Positions 7,748 through 15,793 of a stretch of DNA of 64,000 bases are shown here, in pieces (the stretch's first letter is position 1; each line of letters starts with the position of its first letter). Position numbers and translations under genes: made by a program. This DNA is from Acidobacteriota bacterium (lineage in GTDB: Bacteria > Acidobacteriota > Terriglobia > Acidiferrales > UBA7541), in the NCBI GenBank assembly GCA_021818865.1, contig JAKASX010000001.1:62001-126000 (forward strand). Reading direction: 5' to 3'. Below the pieces are notes generated by a model that saw nothing but the letters and a program-made list of their open reading frames with translations, made no database searches and was not told the origin of the DNA.

Positions 7748-8716
7748 CTAGAAGGCCGGCTCCGGCAGGCCCAGGTACGGGACGGTCACGACGAGGGCAT
7801 ATCTCTGCTCCCAGATCCAGTGCCACAGGTTGCCTGGGTCTGGGGTCAGTGGCTTGCCGGCAATCGCGTCCTCCGCCTTAGTGACCTCTCGCGTGAGGAC
7901 CATCGTCGTTAGGCTGGCCGAGATCCTGTTGCCCGCAGGGCCCACAGTGACATCTCTTGAGGCGGCCTTCACGATTCCGAAGGGTCCGGCGCCAGGTGAG
8001 ACCCACACGTCGCCGCCGTGGTGCCGGAAGCTCCAGTGCTCGCAATGAAAAGTTCCCGCCGGCGTGGTCACTACGGCTGGGCCGAGGTCGTCCGCCCTCG
8101 GCATCTCCAAGTACTGCACGTTTGCCATCCTGAGTCCGGAGAAATAGCCTCTCCCGCCCACCGAGCCAACCCCCCACCAGTTGTCTGGGTCGCTCCATGG
8201 TCCGTTGTACCAGACCCCCGTCGTCTTTCCACGTGGGGTGTGGATGTACCCTGAGGCGGCCTGGAGGTCGCCCTGCGCCCAGCTCCAGAGCCACTCCTGC
8301 GGGAGGGCCATCGGCGGATGGCCCGGAACCAGAGCTACTCCTCTCGAAAACGCCGCCCTCCCCGTGTCTACTGTGAACAGTACCTTGTTGACCAGCGATT
8401 CCTTCTTGCCGGGAAGATGCCCGGACGCCTCCAGCCAATACCACTCCCTTCCCGCGATGATGCGGGCCCCTACGATGGCCAACCTAAACTCGCAATCTGT
8501 GAGCCAGTGCTTAGGGGGGGTCTTTGTCTTTACGCTGTACTCGGCCCCGAACCCGACGGAGAGTTCCCACGCATGCCAGAAGGGCGGGGCATTGCGACGT
8601 ACGGTCCCCTGGGCACGCGCTGCCAGGCTAGCTGCCGCCAGCGTCAAAACCACCGCGACGGTGCACCAAGCCACGCTCACGACACCGCGCTGCAACGTGC
8701 GCCTCAGAAGCTGCAT
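7748..8716 (-). CDS. Exported protein, paralogue 2 of the RHS-linked family
   Basis: About 322 residues with an N-terminal signal peptide (hydrophobic core VVSVAW through LAAASLAARAQG). The body is clearly homologous to the protein at 10105-11016. Shared blocks include AWELSVGFGAEYSV, YWLEASGHLPG, VNKVLFTVDTG, PMALPQEWL, GPFGIVKA and a closing DAIAGKPLTPDPGNLWHWIW. A TPAGTFHCEHW block is present here. I recall acidobacterial periplasmic proteins with a similar CEHW pattern but cannot name a family. The start at 8716 is uncertain (8746 and 8731 also in frame); all of them overlap the end of RHS cassette B, so the two genes are physically coupled. Role unknown; immunity or cargo processing is inference from position. 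Confidence 0.6.
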   Translation of the reverse strand: MQLLRRTLQRGVVSVAWCTVAVVLTLAAASLAARAQGTVRRNAPPFWHAWELSVGFGAEYSVKTKTPPKHWLTDCEFRLAIVGARIIAGREWYWLEASGHLPGKKESLVNKVLFTVDTGRAAFSRGVALVPGHPPMALPQEWLWSWAQGDLQAASGYIHTPRGKTTGVWYNGPWSDPDNWWGVGSVGGRGYFSGLRMANVQYLEMPRADDLGPAVVTTPAGTFHCEHWSFRHHGGDVWVSPGAGPFGIVKAASRDVTVGPAGNRISASLTTMVLTREVTKAEDAIAGKPLTPDPGNLWHWIWEQRYALVVTVPYLGLPEPAF

Positions 8717-9987
8717 GGGTCCATGTCCCATGGCGTCGGCAGGCAAGAATTGCCTCCGCCGCCACTGCTGCCGAAGAACATCTGCATGTCGAATTGGGGA
8801 AACCCGGCATCGAGCCAGTCTCCGAGCAGGTTGCCTCCGATCGGAATGTCGTCCTCGGCCGGGAAGCCGTACGCGTGCGTGTAAAATGACAGCCCCTCCG
8901 CTACATTACTCCCGCTTGCCGAGGGGGCACCGAAGATAGCGTCGAAGCTGGGCTGATAGTAGTTCAGATAGAACCATGATTCTTGTTCCGCGGGCGTCAA
9001 GTTTTTCGGAGGTACGGGCGGGGAGGAAAGGTACGTCCCGCACCCTGACGGGCCGGGGTGTGTCCAGGCCTGTTGTGTTAGAGGGCCTGGCCCTGGCGCA
9101 GAGAAGGCGTCGCACACCGCGCCGAAGGCGCTGCCGTACGGGCTGGTTGGCGTGGGCGCGTGGCTGCGCAGGTACGCAAGGAAGGCGCGCGCTTCGATCT
9201 CAGCGGCCTCGGCTATTTGGAGCATCGCCCCAAGGGGATGCGCCGGCACGGGGGTTGGTGCGGCACCCGTCCACCCCCCGGCGATGGAAACCGTCGGGCC
9301 TCCAGCGATCAAGGCAGCGACGAATACTTCTGTAGAATTGCCTGCGGGAGCGCCAAAGGCCGCTGGCATTTCCCTTGGGCCGACGAAGCTCGTCGGGTTG
9401 TTTGCAATATAGGAGTAGCCGTTCAAGGATTGTGGGCTTCCGACGTCCGCGAGCGTGAAATCTGGACTCATGAAGCGGCCGAGACGCGGGTTGTAATACC
9501 TTGCGTACGCATAATAATTACCCGTTTCGGAGTCGAATTCGTAGCCGGTGAATTTGTACGTGGGCGAGCAGGACGTGTTGTAGTCGTTTTCCTGCCCATA
9601 CGGATAATAATCCGCGCTGGAACACACGTTCCCGCTTGAATCGGTGACTGCTCGCGTCGAGCCGATGGCATCCGCGAAATAATAGTAGACGTTGCCGGAG
9701 GAGTCCTTCCACGCGATTCTTCGTCCGGCGAAGAAAATGTAATCGCGTTCCATTCCGCCGCTCGTGTTAGTCTCTTCGATCACCTGGCCAGTATACGCGC
9801 GCCAGTAGAGCGTGCCGCTGGATTTTTCGACGCGCAGGCCGTCGCCGTCGTACGTGTAATTCACGCCGTTGGCTCTCGTGATTTCGCCCGCACCGTTGTA
9901 CGTGTAACTGTACAGTGCGTCGCCCGTAATGTCGCCATCAGCATCGTAGCTGGGCCCGCTGCTGGAAATCTGGTTGTTGCCATTCAC
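8704..9987 (-). CDS. RHS-core fragment B with unique C-terminal tip
   Basis: A 427-residue frame starting with GTG inside RHS sequence (NGNNQISSSGPSYDADGD). It carries the same core as copy A (RDYIFFAGRRIAWKDSSGN, YYPYGQENDYNTSC, YNPRLGRFMSPD). Homology extends upstream to about 10020 (KCTGPSLSVTV) and stops next to an in-frame TGA. After NGYSYIANNPTSF the expected DPxGL border is replaced by VGPREM, so the usual cleavage/border motif is missing. The ~220-residue tip is Pro/Ala/Gly-rich with a helical stretch (AMLQIAEAAEIEARAFLAYL) and ends DMDPCSF; I recognise no toxin fold. Its stop overlaps the start region of the next exported protein, suggesting the pair moved and is translated together. 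Confidence 0.7.
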   Translation of the reverse strand: MNGNNQISSSGPSYDADGDITGDALYSYTYNGAGEITRANGVNYTYDGDGLRVEKSSGTLYWRAYTGQVIEETNTSGGMERDYIFFAGRRIAWKDSSGNVYYYFADAIGSTRAVTDSSGNVCSSADYYPYGQENDYNTSCSPTYKFTGYEFDSETGNYYAYARYYNPRLGRFMSPDFTLADVGSPQSLNGYSYIANNPTSFVGPREMPAAFGAPAGNSTEVFVAALIAGGPTVSIAGGWTGAAPTPVPAHPLGAMLQIAEAAEIEARAFLAYLRSHAPTPTSPYGSAFGAVCDAFSAPGPGPLTQQAWTHPGPSGCGTYLSSPPVPPKNLTPAEQESWFYLNYYQPSFDAIFGAPSASGSNVAEGLSFYTHAYGFPAEDDIPIGGNLLGDWLDAGFPQFDMQMFFGSSGGGGNSCLPTPWDMDPCSF

Positions 9988-11016: not shown

Positions 11017-11239
11017 GCCTTTGGCCCCATGCGGGCTTTCTCGCCCTGCACCAGCCGAGGCGGAGGAGCCACAGACAGGATGCGTATTTGCGCGGGGGCT
11101 TGGCGGCTGCTCGTGACCCTCACAGGCTGCACACATCGTTCCATCCGCCGATGCCGCATTCGCTGTTCCCCGAAAATCCCCCTCCCTCTCCAAAAAACGT
11201 ATTCACGTCGAAGGAGGGGAGCCGGGGTCGGCTGCGAAG

Positions 11240-11520
11240 TTAATGTAGTCGCGTTGCATTCCACCGCTCGCGTTTGTCTCTTCGATCACCTGGCCAGTAT
11301 ACGCGCGCCAGAAGAGCGTGCCGCTGGATTTTTCGACGCGCAGGCCGTTGCCGTCATACGTATAATTCACGCCGTTGGCGCTGGTGATTTCGTTCGCGCC
11401 GTTGAACGTGTAGCTGTACAGCGCGTCGGCTGTCATGTCGCCATCAGCATCGTAACTGAACCCGCTGCTGGAAATCTGGTTGTTGCCATTCACCGAAACG
11501 CTCAGGCTCGGGCCGGAGCA
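11240..11520 (-). repeat. RHS-core DNA repeat, copy 3 (partial)
   Basis: Matches copies 1 and 2 from the NGNNQISSSG region to RDYI, then diverges at about 11240, where the exported-protein gene begins. The second half of the core present in the other copies is absent. Confidence 0.8.
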
Positions 11521-12117
11521 CTTGAAGACGCTCATCGAAAGCAGGTTGCCGAGAGCATCATCGGCGAGGTTGCCTCCAGTGCCGAAATTCAAGCCCCAGC
11601 AGTCCTGACCGGAGCCCGCTTGTGTTTGGGCTTGTAAGATGCGGCCGAGCGGATCGTAGCTGAAGGATTCGTTTCGGCCGCTGTCGTTGCCGTTGCCGAT
11701 TGACGTGACGCTGCCGTTGTTCGCAAAGCCGTAGCTCAGATTGAGCGCGCTGCCGGCGGACGAGGAAGCGGAGATCGAGGTGGGCTCCAAGTCGGGATTG
11801 TAGCTCCAGCTTTCGGTGATTCCGCCGAAGCCGCCGCTGACGTAGCCGTGGAGGTCCTGATCGAGCGCGCCCTGCGGCCAGTAAGTGGCGTTCTGCGCGT
11901 AGTTCGTGCCGCTCGCACCCACGGCGGTCAGTGGACGCTGGGCGCCGCTGTACGTGTAATTGACCGTTCGACCGTCGGGATACGTGAGCGAGACGAGCGA
12001 GCCGTCAAGGTTGTAGGAATGCAGGATGATCTTCGTGACGCCGGCAATTGTCTTCTCTTCGGCCACGATGCGCCCTGCGGGACCGTAGCTCCAGGCGGTT
12101 TGGCCCGATTGAACCCA

Positions 12118-12279: not shown

Positions 12280-13629
12280 CTACAGGCCGGGGATCAAGAG
12301 CATGCCGGGCGCGGCATTGGCCTTGCCGAAGGTCAGCGAGTAAATCATGAAGAGCGTGACGACGATCATTACCATCACGGCGATCCAGCCGATCACGTTG
12401 AAAACGCGCCCATTCGTCAATTTTCCCATCAGGTCGCGCCGGTTGATCAGCAGCAGCATGAAAATGATCACGATCGGCAGCCAAATACCGTTGGCCACCT
12501 GGGAATAGAGCAGGATTTTGAAAAGAGGGGCGTGGGGAATCAGGATGATCGCACCACCTACGACGATCAAACCCGTGTAGAGGGCGTAGAAAATCGGCGC
12601 TTCGGCGAGTTTGCGGTCGATACCGGCCTCAAACCCAAGCCCTTCGCAAATTACGTGCGCGGTGGAAAGCGGCAGCACCGAAGCGGAAAAAACCGATGCA
12701 TTGAGCAGGCCGAAAGCGAACAGCCACGACGCCCAACGCCCGGCGAGCGGGGCGAGCGCCGCGGCCGCCTGGCCGGCGTCGGTGATATTCAAAACGCCAT
12801 GCAGATTGAGCGTGGCCGCCGTGCAGACGATGATGAAAAAGACCACGATCATGGACGTGACGCTGCCGAGCAGGACATCCATGCGGGCGTGCCGATATTG
12901 CCGCGGACCGATTTTCTTTTCGACTTCGCTCGCCTGCAGGTAGAAGAACTGCCACGGGGCCACCGTCGTGCCCACCAGGCCGACCAGCATCACCAGATAG
13001 CCGCCGCTGAAATGAAATTCCGGCACCAAGGTCCGGTGAATCGCCAGCGACCAATCGGGCTTCGCCAGAATCGCGGAAAAGACGTAGCAAACATAAAAGC
13101 TGCAACCGACCAGAAACACCTTTTCCACGACGCGATAAGTCCCGTTCACCACCAGCAGCCACACCAGCAGCGCTGCCACGGGCACGGCGATGTACTTGGA
13201 AATGCCGAAAATGCTCATGCTTTCGGCGACGCCGGCGAATTCCGCCGTCGTATTGCCCAGGTCCACCAGCAGGCCTGCCAGCATCAGGAAAAAGGTCCAG
13301 CGGAATCCGAATTCCTCGCGCGTAAGGTCGGAAAGCCCTTTGCCCGTCACCACGCCCATGCGGGCGCTCATTTCCTCGGTGACGTACAGAAGGATCGTCA
13401 GAGGGATCATCGTCCAGAGCAGCGCGTAGCCGAATTGCGCTCCGGTCTGGGAGTAGGTGGCGATGCCGCCAGCGTCGTTATCGACGTTGGAGGCGATAAG
13501 CCCGGGACCGATCACCGCCAGGAACAAAAAGATCCGTCGGCGCCACAAATGGAGCTGATGGCGGAGGCTGGGCTCGGGGCGTTCCTCGCGGCGGGAGCGC
13601 AGCCGGCTGGTGAGTGTGGGCCAATTCAT
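12280..13629 (-). CDS. Divergent Nramp-family divalent metal transporter
   Basis: A 449-residue inner-membrane transporter with about 11 hydrophobic segments and the Nramp fold pattern (GPGLIAS in segment 1, GAQFGYALLW after it). The metal-site motifs are altered. In segment 1 the canonical DPGN reads DNDAGG (D50), and in segment 6 the canonical MPH reads APW (A224-P225-W226). The lost methionine is the residue that favours Mn/Fe over Ca/Mg in true Nramps, so this belongs with Nramp-related transporters that may prefer Mg or another hard cation. The start ATG overlaps the stop of the MgtE-N/CBS gene as ATGA, implying translational coupling and a shared job in Mg/Mn homeostasis. The family is sure; the substrate is inferred. 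Confidence 0.85.
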   Translation of the reverse strand: MNWPTLTSRLRSRREERPEPSLRHQLHLWRRRIFLFLAVIGPGLIASNVDNDAGGIATYSQTGAQFGYALLWTMIPLTILLYVTEEMSARMGVVTGKGLSDLTREEFGFRWTFFLMLAGLLVDLGNTTAEFAGVAESMSIFGISKYIAVPVAALLVWLLVVNGTYRVVEKVFLVGCSFYVCYVFSAILAKPDWSLAIHRTLVPEFHFSGGYLVMLVGLVGTTVAPWQFFYLQASEVEKKIGPRQYRHARMDVLLGSVTSMIVVFFIIVCTAATLNLHGVLNITDAGQAAAALAPLAGRWASWLFAFGLLNASVFSASVLPLSTAHVICEGLGFEAGIDRKLAEAPIFYALYTGLIVVGGAIILIPHAPLFKILLYSQVANGIWLPIVIIFMLLLINRRDLMGKLTNGRVFNVIGWIAVMVMIVVTLFMIYSLTFGKANAAPGMLLIPGL

Positions 13630-14867
13630 CGCTTCTGGCGCAGGCGGCTGACGACGTCGTCCACCGTAATCACGCCTACCGGGCGCTCGTCGTCGTCGAC
13701 CACCGCCAGACTCCTCAGATTGTATTTGTCGAACATTTCAAAAACTTCCCGCTCCCCAGTTTCCCCGCGCACGTAGACCCGAGGTTCGCTCTTCAGTTCG
13801 CGCATGGGCCGCTCGTCGTCAGCGAGCACCAGCCGCGCGACGGCCACCGTTCCCGTAAAGACCGCGTGCGCATCGATCAAAACGATCGTATCGAGCTGAT
13901 CGGGCTTCAGATCGCGAGACCGGATCCAGGCGACCGCTTCCTGGCGCGTCGCGTCTTCGCCGACGAACACGAAATCGGTATTCATCATCCAGCCGGCCGT
14001 TCCCTCGCCGAATCGCAGGAGTTCGCTCACTTCCCGCGCTTCCTCGCGCGGCAGTTCGCAGAGCAGTTCCTCGCTGGTTTCCGGCGGCAAATTCGCCAAC
14101 AGGTGAGCCGCTTCGTCCGGCGCCATTTCCTCCAGAATATCCGCGGCGCGTCCCGGCTCCAGTTTCTCGACCACCTGCGTTTTCAGCCGGTGATCGAGTT
14201 CGGCAATCACCTCCGCTGCGGTCTGCTCGTCGAGCGAAGCCACGATTGCTTCGCGCTCGCTGGGCGAGAGTTCTTCCATGATGTCGGCCAGATCGGCCGG
14301 GTGCAGCCGGGCCAGCCGGTGGCCGGTGAGCCGGAGCTTCACGCGCCGCAGCGGATTCGGTTCGATCAGATTCACGAATTCCCAAGGGATCACGCGCGGC
14401 GGCAATTTATCCTGCAAACGCCGGATCACCTGCGCCGGGGCGAGTCCCTGCATGAGCCGGCCGACCGCGCCCGGCAGCCCCACATCCACCTGGCTGACAC
14501 GAAGCTCGATGGCGCCGTTCGTTCGGACTTCGGTCATGGTGATGTCGTTCACACGCACCACTTTGCGCCCATGCGTATCAATGATCTGCTGATCGAGCAG
14601 ATCCTTCTGAACGGCGAGCCACGCTTCGTTTGGGCTGTAGGGCCGCAGCGCCCGCTCGTCCACCTGCAACCGAATCGTGCCGGGCGCGACGAAGCCTATC
14701 TGGTCCCAACGGGCCACGAGCGGCTGGAAGCGCCCGCGCGCCAGCAGGAACCAGGCCACGCGGTTCGGCTGCTCCGCCGGCTCGATAAACATCTCCCGCA
14801 GGCGCCCGACGAAGTTGCCTTGGGCGTCGTAGGCCTGCGCACCCAGAATTTCAGTTGCTCGGAGCAC
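13626..14867 (-). CDS. Soluble PRC-barrel / MgtE-N / CBS-pair protein
   Basis: About 413 residues with no membrane segment. Domain order: a PRC-barrel-like module (GAQAYDAQGNFVGRLREMF), a second PRC-like module (DTHGRKVVRVNDI), the MgtE N-terminal superhelix (LHPADLADIMEELSPSE, then repeated EMAPDEAAHLLANLPPE), and a CBS pair ending in SLAVVDDDERPVGVITVDDVV. In MgtE these soluble domains sense Mg2+ and gate the channel; here the channel is missing and an Nramp-like transporter gene follows with a 4-base overlap, so it probably acts as that transporter's metal sensor. The start is placed at GTG 14867, preceded by GAGGTGG; the longer frame to 14933 would begin inside the leader terminator. Confidence 0.85.
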   Translation of the reverse strand: MLRATEILGAQAYDAQGNFVGRLREMFIEPAEQPNRVAWFLLARGRFQPLVARWDQIGFVAPGTIRLQVDERALRPYSPNEAWLAVQKDLLDQQIIDTHGRKVVRVNDITMTEVRTNGAIELRVSQVDVGLPGAVGRLMQGLAPAQVIRRLQDKLPPRVIPWEFVNLIEPNPLRRVKLRLTGHRLARLHPADLADIMEELSPSEREAIVASLDEQTAAEVIAELDHRLKTQVVEKLEPGRAADILEEMAPDEAAHLLANLPPETSEELLCELPREEAREVSELLRFGEGTAGWMMNTDFVFVGEDATRQEAVAWIRSRDLKPDQLDTIVLIDAHAVFTGTVAVARLVLADDERPMRELKSEPRVYVRGETGEREVFEMFDKYNLRSLAVVDDDERPVGVITVDDVVSRLRQKR

Positions 14868-14907: not shown

Positions 14908-14951
14908 AAAAAAAGCCCCGTGGCCGGCAGCAAAGGCTTGGGCCACGGGGC
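14908..14951 (-). terminator. Intrinsic terminator in the leader of the metal-transport operon
   Basis: Perfect 11-bp stem GCCCCGTGGCC/GGCCACGGGGC (14941-14951 with 14915-14925), a 15-base loop and seven T on the minus strand. It lies about 40 bases before the GTG start of the MgtE-N/CBS gene, inside the transcript leader, so it must be regulated or it would silence the operon. Confidence 0.85.
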
Positions 14952-15075
14952 CTGTCCAATGTTCGGACAGGCTAAATCCCCGGACTCAGCGCCACCGGAC
15001 CCGAGCGGCCGGAAGGCTCCGCCCCGCTACCGAAGGGCGGTTCCCAGCCGGCCACATCTCTACTCCCATCCATTT
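14908..15075 (-). ncRNA. Structured leader RNA, candidate metal riboswitch (yybP-ykoY-like?)
   Basis: Minus-strand leader of the MgtE-N/Nramp pair. It begins with GATGGGAGTAG, followed by a long GC-rich stem (GGCCGG...CCGGCC enclosing CCGCCC/GGGGCGG with a TTCGG loop), then GGCGCTGAGTCCGG, a perfect hairpin GCCTGTCC/GGACAGGC and a terminator. The GGGAGTAG and GCTGAG words and their order recall the yybP-ykoY (Mn2+) riboswitch, whose consensus has GGGGAGUAG and CUGAGAC; the match is imperfect, so the class is tentative. A structured leader plus terminator in front of a metal-transport operon argues for metal-dependent antitermination. Confidence 0.5.
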
Positions 15076-15139
15076 CTGCCTCGCATTCCTTTAGTAGGAG
15101 CAGTTCGACTCTTTGTCAAGAACAGAGTCGCGCAATCGC

Positions 15140-15793
15140 TTACTTTTTTTCGTGAGGAGCCGGTTTCACGGCTTCGGGAAAGACCATCGCGTCGCTGGGA
15201 AGCCCCAATCGCTCTCGCGCAGCCAGAAACAGCTCGTAATAGCTCACCGTCAGGTAGTCGTCCGGCGCATAACCCAGCTTCCGGGCAGCCTTGTCGATCT
15301 CGCTCCGGGGACCCTCGAGCTCGAAATAAACGCCGATGGAGGTTTCGTCGAGTTCGATCGCCAGATTCTTCAGGCCGGGCAAGCGGTAGGTGGTGCGGAA
15401 TTTCTCGTAACGGAACCACGGCTGGAACCCCACGCTCTCGAGCATCCGCTCAACCTGCCCTGGATCCTCGACCCGGGTCTCGATTTCCCGCCGCACCTTA
15501 TAGCCGGGCTGGTCCAGCGGCGTTTTCACGGTCAAAAAACCCACCTTTCGTTTCCGACCGGGATTCGTGCCCGCGGGATGGCGCGGCCTTGCCGTGCCCG
15601 CGGCTCGCTGAACGGTCCGAACGCGCAGTACGCGGCCCGTAAACCCCAATTTTCGTTCCGGGGTGTCGAACAACGTATTCCGTTCATAGACGCGACGGAC
15701 GGCGCGGGCGCCGGCGCGGCGAAGCAGTTTTCGCGCGGTTGCCAGATCGGCCGCGGCCAGCTTAATTTCGATTTCGAGCCCGTTGTTGGCCAT
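15140..15793 (-). CDS. CYTH-domain protein (class IV adenylate cyclase / triphosphate phosphohydrolase family)
   Basis: A 217-residue cytosolic protein. It starts with LEIEIKLA (ExExK, residues about 6-12), the metal- and triphosphate-binding signature of the CYTH tunnel fold. It continues with RNTLFDTPERKL, LRVRTV, LTVKTP, VRREIET, ELDETSIGVYFELEG, the alternating charged beta-strands expected for CYTH. These enzymes act on triphosphates (class IV adenylate cyclase, thiamine triphosphatase, tripolyphosphatase), and sequence alone does not decide which. An Arg/Lys-rich loop (about residues 65-85) is inserted between strands. It is upstream of the metal-transport operon but separated from it by the leader, so it is probably its own unit. 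Confidence 0.8.
   Translation of the reverse strand: MANNGLEIEIKLAAADLATARKLLRRAGARAVRRVYERNTLFDTPERKLGFTGRVLRVRTVQRAAGTARPRHPAGTNPGRKRKVGFLTVKTPLDQPGYKVRREIETRVEDPGQVERMLESVGFQPWFRYEKFRTTYRLPGLKNLAIELDETSIGVYFELEGPRSEIDKAARKLGYAPDDYLTVSYYELFLAARERLGLPSDAMVFPEAVKPAPHEKK

What the first reader, a model, noticed from the sequence alone, without database searches (positions are those of the whole stretch)
12280..14867. Nramp-like transporter with altered metal site, coupled to a channel-less MgtE sensor
The transporter keeps the Nramp fold but DPGN becomes DNDAGG and MPH becomes APW, removing the methionine that selects transition metals. It overlaps by ATGA a soluble protein with MgtE-N and CBS domains, the Mg2+-sensing parts of a different transporter family. 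Together they look like a two-gene Mg2+ (or Mn2+) uptake system in which a borrowed MgtE sensor gates an Nramp-type carrier.
Basis: partly seen in the sequence, partly recalled or inferred. Interest (0 to 1): 0.68.

Follow-up and report, generated by a model that had tools for sequence, protein, structure and literature searches.

The report
Magnesium importer operon with leader-ORF attenuator
Two overlapping genes of an uncultured soil Acidobacteriota bacterium encode an already described kind of magnesium- or manganese-importing Nramp relative and its magnesium-sensing partner, and in front of them sits an undescribed short open reading frame followed by a transcription stop signal that may switch the importer on when the ribosome fails to finish translating it.

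Summary
An Nramp-type carrier (12280-13629, minus strand) with NDAGG and TTVAPW at the metal site overlaps by ATGA a soluble protein (13626-14867) with PRC barrel, MgtE_N and CBS. The pairing is not new: Shin et al. 2014 (PMC4072509) named the carriers NrmT, reported the separate MgtE-N gene beside most of them, and tested one acidobacterial pair, which rescued manganese fully and magnesium only weakly. The partner keeps the Mg4-site aspartates of MgtE but has lost its Mg5 and ATP-binding residues. In the family (89 genomes) the pair is nearly universal while CorA and MgtE are rare, which favours magnesium uptake.

The undescribed part lies upstream. In 70 of 71 leaders tested, a 33-70 codon ORF ends about 55 nt before the T-run of an intrinsic terminator in front of the partner gene (17% in shuffles). 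The ORF stays open although its middle evolves almost freely, and it usually carries an acidic-proline pair at codon 8 or 9, as in the Mg2+-sensing leader peptide MgtL of enterobacteria. I infer a translation-coupled attenuator. Magnesium sensing is a hypothesis; weak Shine-Dalgarno sites, loss of the motif in part of the window's genus and weak antiterminator evidence count against it.

The parts
12280..13629 (-). NrmT-type Nramp-related carrier, 449 aa; metal-site motifs NDAGG (TM1) and TTVAPW (TM6)
13626..14867 (-). Soluble partner, 413 aa, GTG start: PRC barrel(s) + MgtE_N + CBS pair; no transmembrane channel
14655..14867 (-). PRC-barrel domain (Pfam match); a second barrel-like part follows up to about model residue 181
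14004..14306 (-). MgtE_N domain; keeps equivalents of TtMgtE E59 and D91; H at D95
13641..14003 (-). CBS pair; keeps D247; D226->N, D250->S and all five ATP-contacting residues replaced
13626..13629 (-). ATGA overlap of partner stop and carrier start
14972..15073 (-). Leader ORF, 33 codons (MDGSRDVAGWEPPFGSGAEPSGRSGPVALSPGI), stop TAG just before the terminator
15035..15043 (-). Glu11-Pro12-Pro13 codons of the leader ORF
14908..14951 (-). Intrinsic terminator: 11-bp GC stem (14941-14951 with 14915-14925) and seven T (14914-14908)
15114..15119 (-). TTGACA, -35-like, at similar distance in most relatives; the -10 (TACTAA, 15091-15096) is a poor match
   Evidence: the promoter scan did not call it
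15140..15793 (-). CYTH-domain gene upstream, same strand, synteny conserved

Best explanation
The two genes are one operon for a divalent-cation importer of the NrmT type, most likely the main Mg2+ importer of this acidobacterial family (about 0.7; Mn2+ may also pass). The soluble partner is the Mg2+-sensing half of MgtE used in trans: at high cytoplasmic Mg2+ its N and CBS domains close around a retained Mg4-type site and restrain the carrier (inferred, about 0.6). Expression is set by a translation-coupled attenuator in the leader: RNA polymerase meets an intrinsic terminator before the partner gene. If a ribosome translates the leader ORF to its stop codon it covers RNA that could otherwise pair with the terminator's 5' arm, and transcription ends. 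If translation halts or aborts early, at the acidic-proline codons, an antiterminator can form and the operon is read (translation-coupled attenuation about 0.75). That the signal is low Mg2+, through destabilised ribosomes as in MgtL, is a hypothesis (about 0.4). Shown by sequence: the genes, the motifs, the open leader ORF, the terminator, their conservation. Inferred: every functional step.
For: Carrier: best PDB relative EleNRMT (2.6e-100) far ahead of canonical Nramps; DxxG-TxxA signature met (signature from PMC8806188). Partner: model residues 187-413 match the MgtE cytosolic domain (2yvy Z 26.7, rmsd 2.1, 239 aligned); over 108 partner sequences the Mg4 residue D91 is D in 27 of 27 family and 77 of 81 other rows, and D247 is D in 26 of 27 and 76 of 81 (site residues from PMC5882242). 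Mg2+: over the curated cut-offs MgtE is in 3 of 89, CorA in 7 of 89, MgtA in 15 of 89 family genomes, the partner in 81 of 89; by hand tally of those calls, 32 of 50 good-quality genomes have none of the three, all 32 have the pair, and the one good genome without the pair (G091) has an MgtA of 1160 bits. A canonical Nramp is present besides in 48 of 89. Leader: ORF of at least 30 codons with its stop 45-70 nt before the T-run in 70 of 71 leaders, 17% of shuffles; stop-to-T distance 50-59 in 68 of 70; 0 nonsense changes against 22 expected in 28 pairs; [DE]P at codon 8 or 9 from the first ATG in 49 of 70, and anywhere in 62 of 70 against 10 and 12 in the other frames; residues 2-10 are 22% acidic, the rest 6%. 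Ribosome-masked folding: P(terminator) mean 0.85 with the ribosome on the last three codons, 0.70 without; higher in 37, lower in 7 of 70. In the window 0.63 free, 0.03 and 0.01 at E11 and P12, 0.97 at the stop. Enterobacterial MgtL works by this logic through an EPDP motif (PMC11282234 passages).
Against: The A. capsulatum homologue behaved as a Mn2+ transporter, with weak Mg2+ rescue and no effect of its partner (PMC4072509). The window's genome also has an MgtA-like ATPase (864 bits) and a second NRMT-like carrier, and CNNM/CorC proteins are in 82 of 89 family genomes, so NrmT is not its only possible Mg2+ route. In the window's genus the acidic-proline motif is in 2 of 5 leaders only. Shine-Dalgarno strength before the leader ORF is little above control (42 of 70 against 142 of 350; main gene 69 of 70). 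Substitutions by codon position 267/266/315 show almost no amino-acid constraint over the whole ORF. The antiterminator is not supported by covariation: own against foreign duplex z -0.23 (terminator control -0.82), few varying pairs. The dip at the E-P codons seen in the window occurs in 1 of 45 leaders. Mg6 is H in the window's genus and Mg5 is lost in all. The leader is absent outside the family (0 of 27 loci with the motif).
Confidence: 0.58

Rival explanations
1. The carrier imports Mn2+ (or Mn2+/Fe2+) and the MgtE-like partner responds to Mn2+; the leader reports something else.
For: The only tested acidobacterial pair rescued a Mn2+-uptake mutant fully and Mg2+ only weakly (PMC4072509). 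The window's genome has no canonical Nramp over the TIGR01197 cut-off. Mg6 and Mg5 residues of MgtE are not kept in the window protein.
Against: The metal-site methionine that favours transition metals is absent; 48 of 89 family genomes carry a canonical Nramp besides; CorA, MgtE and MgtA are mostly missing in the family while the pair is almost always there.
Confidence: 0.25
2. The leader is a ligand-binding riboswitch (an unknown Mg2+ or Mn2+ aptamer with a terminator) and the ORF in it is incidental.
For: Leader is strongly structured (z -4.15); both ends of the ORF are conserved at the nucleotide level (pairwise identity 0.76 and 0.71 in one group); almost no amino-acid constraint in the middle; weak SD.
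Against: The middle is not conserved (0.39) and the ORF varies from 33 to 70 codons, unlike an aptamer; an open frame in 70 of 71 against 17% in shuffles and 0 nonsense of 22 expected; no Rfam match in the window at gathering score and none plausible up to E 1 in the leader; M-box in 0 of 89 family genomes.
Confidence: 0.2
3. The leader attenuator is real and translation-coupled but senses general translation speed (proline or charged tRNA supply, EF-P or EttA activity) rather than Mg2+.
For: The conserved residues are acid-proline; early acidic residues pause or destabilise ribosomes in general (PMC11282234); no run of one codon as in amino-acid operons.
Against: The leader stands before a candidate Mg2+ importer, and the same arrangement is Mg2+-responsive in enterobacteria (PMC11282234).
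Confidence: 0.35
4. The terminator belongs to the upstream CYTH gene and has nothing to do with the operon behind it.
For: The CYTH gene lies upstream on the same strand in 31 of 39 and 36 of 60 loci with room.
Against: A TTGACA and a leader ORF with conserved spacing sit between the CYTH gene and the terminator in the window, and precede the terminator in most leaders; the window terminator is about 190-230 nt behind the CYTH stop and within 50 nt of the partner start.
Confidence: 0.08

Closest known systems
NrmT / NRMT, Nramp-related Mg2+ transporters (C. acetobutylicum Ca_c0685; EleNRMT 7qia) with adjacent MgtE-N-like gene
   Same: Carrier fold, DxxG-TxxA metal site, adjacent gene for the MgtE cytoplasmic domain (PMC4072509 passages and section 11; PMC8806188 passages)
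   Different: No M-box (0 of 89); leader ORF with intrinsic terminator instead; partner has PRC barrels in front, which the passages read do not mention
MgtE Mg2+ channel, cytosolic N and CBS domains
   Same: Fold (Z 26.7), Mg4 aspartates, mostly Mg6 in the family
   Different: No membrane channel; Mg5 residues and ATP-contacting residues replaced
MgtL leader peptide of mgtA (enterobacteria)
   Same: Leader ORF with early acidic-proline residues before a Mg2+ importer; full translation favours termination (PMC11282234 passages)
   Different: Intrinsic, not Rho-dependent, terminator; ORF 33-70 codons; one acid-Pro pair rather than EPDP; no sequence homology shown; Mg2+ response untested
MgtQ uORF of mgtB (Salmonella)
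   Same: Acidic residues in a short ORF that destabilise ribosomes and switch alternative stems (PMC8092293 passages)
   Different: Acts on translation of mgtB, between genes, 8 codons

Membership tests
NrmT/NRMT | Nramp fold by profile | tested here: met
   Pfam PF01566 2.5e-97
NrmT/NRMT | DxxG in TM1 and TxxA/T in TM6 in place of DxxN and A/CxxM (PMC8806188) | tested here: met
   NDAGG and TTVAPW
NrmT/NRMT | Closer to a characterised NRMT than to canonical Nramps | tested here: met
   EleNRMT 2.6e-100; best canonical 2.3e-35. By pairwise score; the tree is not relied on because one row was a wrong-frame translation
NrmT/NRMT | Transports Mg2+ | not testable with these tools
   needs assay; A. 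capsulatum homologue weak for Mg2+ (PMC4072509)
NrmT with M-box (subset) | M-box riboswitch upstream | tested here: not met
   no match in window, 0 of 89 family genomes
MgtE cytosolic sensor module | N domain and CBS pair of the MgtE fold | tested here: met
MgtE cytosolic sensor module | Mg4 residues D91 and D247 | tested here: met
   residues named in PMC5882242
MgtE cytosolic sensor module | Mg5 residues D226 and D250 | tested here: not met
   N and S in the window; D226 is N in 26 of 27 family rows
MgtE cytosolic sensor module | ATP-contacting residues Y170, R187, D188, N203, F227 | tested here: not met
   T, A, R, S, L in the window (residues from PMC5529423)
MgtE channel | Membrane channel domain | tested here: not met
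   protein ends after CBS; no MgtE channel domain in the Pfam scan
MgtL-type Mg2+-sensing leader | Open leader ORF under selection before a candidate Mg2+ importer gene | tested here: met
   openness, not amino-acid sequence, is conserved
MgtL-type Mg2+-sensing leader | Early acidic-proline motif | tested here: inconclusive
   49 of 70 at codon 8/9; window has WEPP at codon 11; 2 of 5 in the own genus
MgtL-type Mg2+-sensing leader | Rho-dependent terminator | tested here: not met
   intrinsic terminator instead; so not filed as MgtL, only as possibly working like it
MgtL-type Mg2+-sensing leader | Read-through rises in low Mg2+ | not testable with these tools
   needs reporter fusion

The most novel reading that the evidence does not exclude
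This acidobacterial family has independently evolved an MgtL-like device: a leader peptide whose acidic-proline start makes ribosomes drop off at low Mg2+, here coupled to an intrinsic terminator, which together with an MgtE-derived sensor in trans controls the family's main Mg2+ importer at both transcription and activity.
Probability: 0.33. Interest if true: 0.75.

Novelty: new variant of a known kind. Interest (0 to 1): 0.48.

Why it matters
The role of the MgtE-like protein beside NrmT has been open since 2014. The site comparison makes a sharp prediction: Mg4-dependent, ATP-independent sensing. The leader offers a second, independent handle on which ion the system serves: if its read-through follows Mg2+, the disputed substrate of these acidobacterial NrmTs is settled by the cell's own regulation. 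A Mg2+-sensing leader ORF in Acidobacteriota would also suggest that ribosome destabilisation by acidic-proline nascent chains is a general, repeatedly recruited Mg2+ sensor.

Tried and rejected
M-box or another known riboswitch in the leader: rejected for known families. A pattern scan for promoters and terminators missed both the TTGACA and the long-loop terminator. Antiterminator by duplex swapping, motif contingency and RNAalifold on three groups: weak, not used as proof. Ribosome pausing at the acid-proline codons as a general antitermination switch: seen in the window only (1 of 45). The same leader before MgtA-like genes: not found in nine upstream stretches (L213, L215-L222); two of them hold a short ORF with the motif but no TTGACA or terminator of this kind. 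Leader outside the family: 0 of 27 loci with the motif. Tree of carriers: not relied on, because the row for the second carrier was a wrong-frame translation; its true reading is. Literature: searches gave no paper describing a leader ORF before NrmT or PRC barrels on the MgtE-like partner; only the held open library was searched, and I read the hits named in the report, not all. In the fold searches no listed row covered the PRC part except 8qzo at rank 49; absence of others says nothing.

Rows dropped: of 81 family genomes with the partner, the leaders of 80 were read (G075 lies at a contig end). Of the 80, 8 had no terminator at the strict threshold (L048, L051, L056, L059, L069, L070, L082, L119) and 1 had a short leader (L042); 71 were tested. 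L048 and L051 still show the ORF with the motif. In some searches the leader start was chosen with the help of the motif; one search uses the first ATG without it. Both members of the 28 pairs had been selected to carry an ORF, but only 1 of 71 leaders (L101) failed that selection.

Full report
What was claimed and what is there. The finding describes an Nramp-like carrier with an altered metal site and an overlapping soluble protein built from MgtE sensing parts. Both are present as described. The carrier is 449 aa on the minus strand, 13629 to 12280. Its TM1 reads SNVDNDAGG and TM6 GTTVAPWQFF. The partner runs from a GTG at 14867 to 13626; homology in relatives begins at that start. Pfam gives Nramp for the first, and PRC barrel, MgtE_N and CBS for the second.

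The pairing is already known. Shin et al. 2014 (PMC4072509; passages, section 11) named these carriers NrmT, noted that most have an adjacent gene homologous to the MgtE cytoplasmic domain, and tested the pair of Acidobacterium capsulatum. That carrier rescued a manganese-uptake mutant fully and a magnesium mutant only with low-millimolar Mg2+; the partner had no effect. The carrier here meets the DxxG-TxxA signature that the 2022 eLife paper on EleNRMT gives for NRMTs (PMC8806188, passages), and its best solved relative by far is EleNRMT.

The partner. A model built from 51 partner sequences (mean pLDDT 84, pTM 0.52) matches the MgtE cytosolic domain over residues 187-413 (2yvy Z 26.7, rmsd 2.1, 239 aligned). 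Residues 1-181 match one chain of the archaeal CdpB1-CdpB2 complex (8qzo, Z 12.9, 133 aligned), which I recall as PRC-barrel proteins. I mapped the Mg2+ and ATP contacts of Thermus MgtE (named in PMC5882242 and PMC5529423, passages) through the alignment onto 108 partner sequences. D91 and D247, the Mg4 site, are kept almost everywhere. D95 (Mg6) is D in 22 of 27 family rows but H in the window and in 5 of 27 in all. E59 (Mg7) is E in 19 of 27. D226 has become N in 26 of 27 and D250 is lost. All five ATP contacts are replaced. So a Mg2+ response through Mg4 is plausible, ATP control as in MgtE is not.

Which ion. Over curated cut-offs the family of 89 genomes has MgtE in 3, CorA in 7 and MgtA in 15 genomes, and the partner gene in 81. 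My hand tally of the 50 good-quality genomes: 32 have none of the three other importers and all 32 have the pair; the one good genome without the pair carries an MgtA of 1160 bits. Some genomes counted as lacking MgtA hold fragments below the cut-off. Canonical Nramps occur besides in 48 of 89. This favours Mg2+ uptake as the family's use of NrmT. Against it: the A. capsulatum result; an MgtA-like ATPase and a second NRMT-like carrier (GENDAPS, TVTPW) in the window's own genome; and CNNM/CorC proteins in 82 of 89, which are often taken as exporters (recalled).

The leader. Upstream of the partner gene in the window lie a TTGACA, a 33-codon ORF ending in TAG, and directly behind it an 11-bp GC stem with seven T. 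I read the leaders of 80 of the 81 family loci. Seventy-one have a terminator at a strict threshold and enough length; 70 of these have an ORF of at least 30 codons whose stop lies 45-70 nt before the T-run, against 17% of dinucleotide shuffles. The distance is tight: 50 to 59 nt in 68 of 70. In 28 independent pairs of related leaders no nonsense change is seen where about 22 are expected. Yet substitutions fall almost evenly on the three codon positions (267, 266, 315) and the middle of the ORF is poorly conserved (0.39 identity in one group of 26). That is the pattern of a reading frame whose translation matters more than its product. What is conserved is the start, roughly M-x-x-S-x-[EN]-x-[ED]-P, and the end. 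From the first ATG, [DE]P stands at codon 8 or 9 in 49 of 70; it occurs anywhere in 62 of 70 in frame, against 10 and 12 in the other frames.

How it may work. MgtL of enterobacteria carries an EPDP motif; at low Mg2+ ribosomes drop off there, the RNA refolds, and termination before mgtA is avoided, while full translation leads to termination (PMC11282234, passages). MgtQ of Salmonella uses acidic codons in a similar way (PMC8092293, passages). In the leaders here, a ribosome placed on the last codons raises the computed terminator probability (mean 0.85 against 0.70; up in 37, down in 7 of 70), in keeping with pairing of the ORF end to the terminator's 5' arm. In the window a ribosome at Glu11 or Pro12 lowers it to 0.03 or 0.01, and at the stop it is 0.97. 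This last effect is seen in 1 of 45 leaders only, so I do not generalise it. Covariation for the antiterminator is weak. The Shine-Dalgarno before the leader ORF is hardly above control. In the window's genus only 2 of 5 leaders keep the motif. The leader occurs in this family (Candidatus Acidiferrales and relatives by the record titles) and its motif in none of 27 loci outside it. No genome of the family has an M-box.

Verdict. The pair as found is a further member of a described system. The addition is the leader-ORF attenuator, which I found in no paper of the held library. That it is translation-coupled is likely; that it senses Mg2+ is an open and easily tested hypothesis.

Noticed in passing
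window 15140-15793 minus: A CYTH-domain gene (Pfam 5.8e-16) lies upstream on the same strand in 31 of 39 unnamed and 36 of 60 named loci with room upstream: conserved synteny of a probably metal-dependent triphosphate-binding enzyme with the importer operon.
   Followed up: partly
L002:1282-2649: Second Nramp-related carrier of the same genome with GENDAPS and TVTPW at the metal site, a further departure from both canonical Nramp and NrmT.
   Followed up: no
L167, L177, L186, L195, L202: Five NrmT carriers of other Acidobacteriota without an adjacent partner have NDPGG, four of them also TTITPW. Not a clean split: lone L182, L191 and L210 have NDAGG and TTIAPW, and partnered L006 has NDPGG.
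   Followed up: partly
L070, L082 (genus g11): Both genomes of this genus carry CorA and lack the long leader and terminator; the TTGACA sits 67 nt before the partner gene.
   Followed up: partly
L061, L062 (family f3): Short leaders with TTGACA and a GC hairpin with T-run before the partner gene but no leader ORF: attenuation of another kind?
   Followed up: no
L069: About 30-nt tandem repeats directly before the partner gene in place of the leader.
   Followed up: no
L053, L054: The partner gene looks broken into pieces in these two genomes (split match for L025 and L026; a stop), possibly assembly errors.
   Followed up: no
window 8704-9987 and 11203-12066 minus: Two RHS/YD-repeat fragments with near-identical stretches downstream of the carrier gene.
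   Followed up: no
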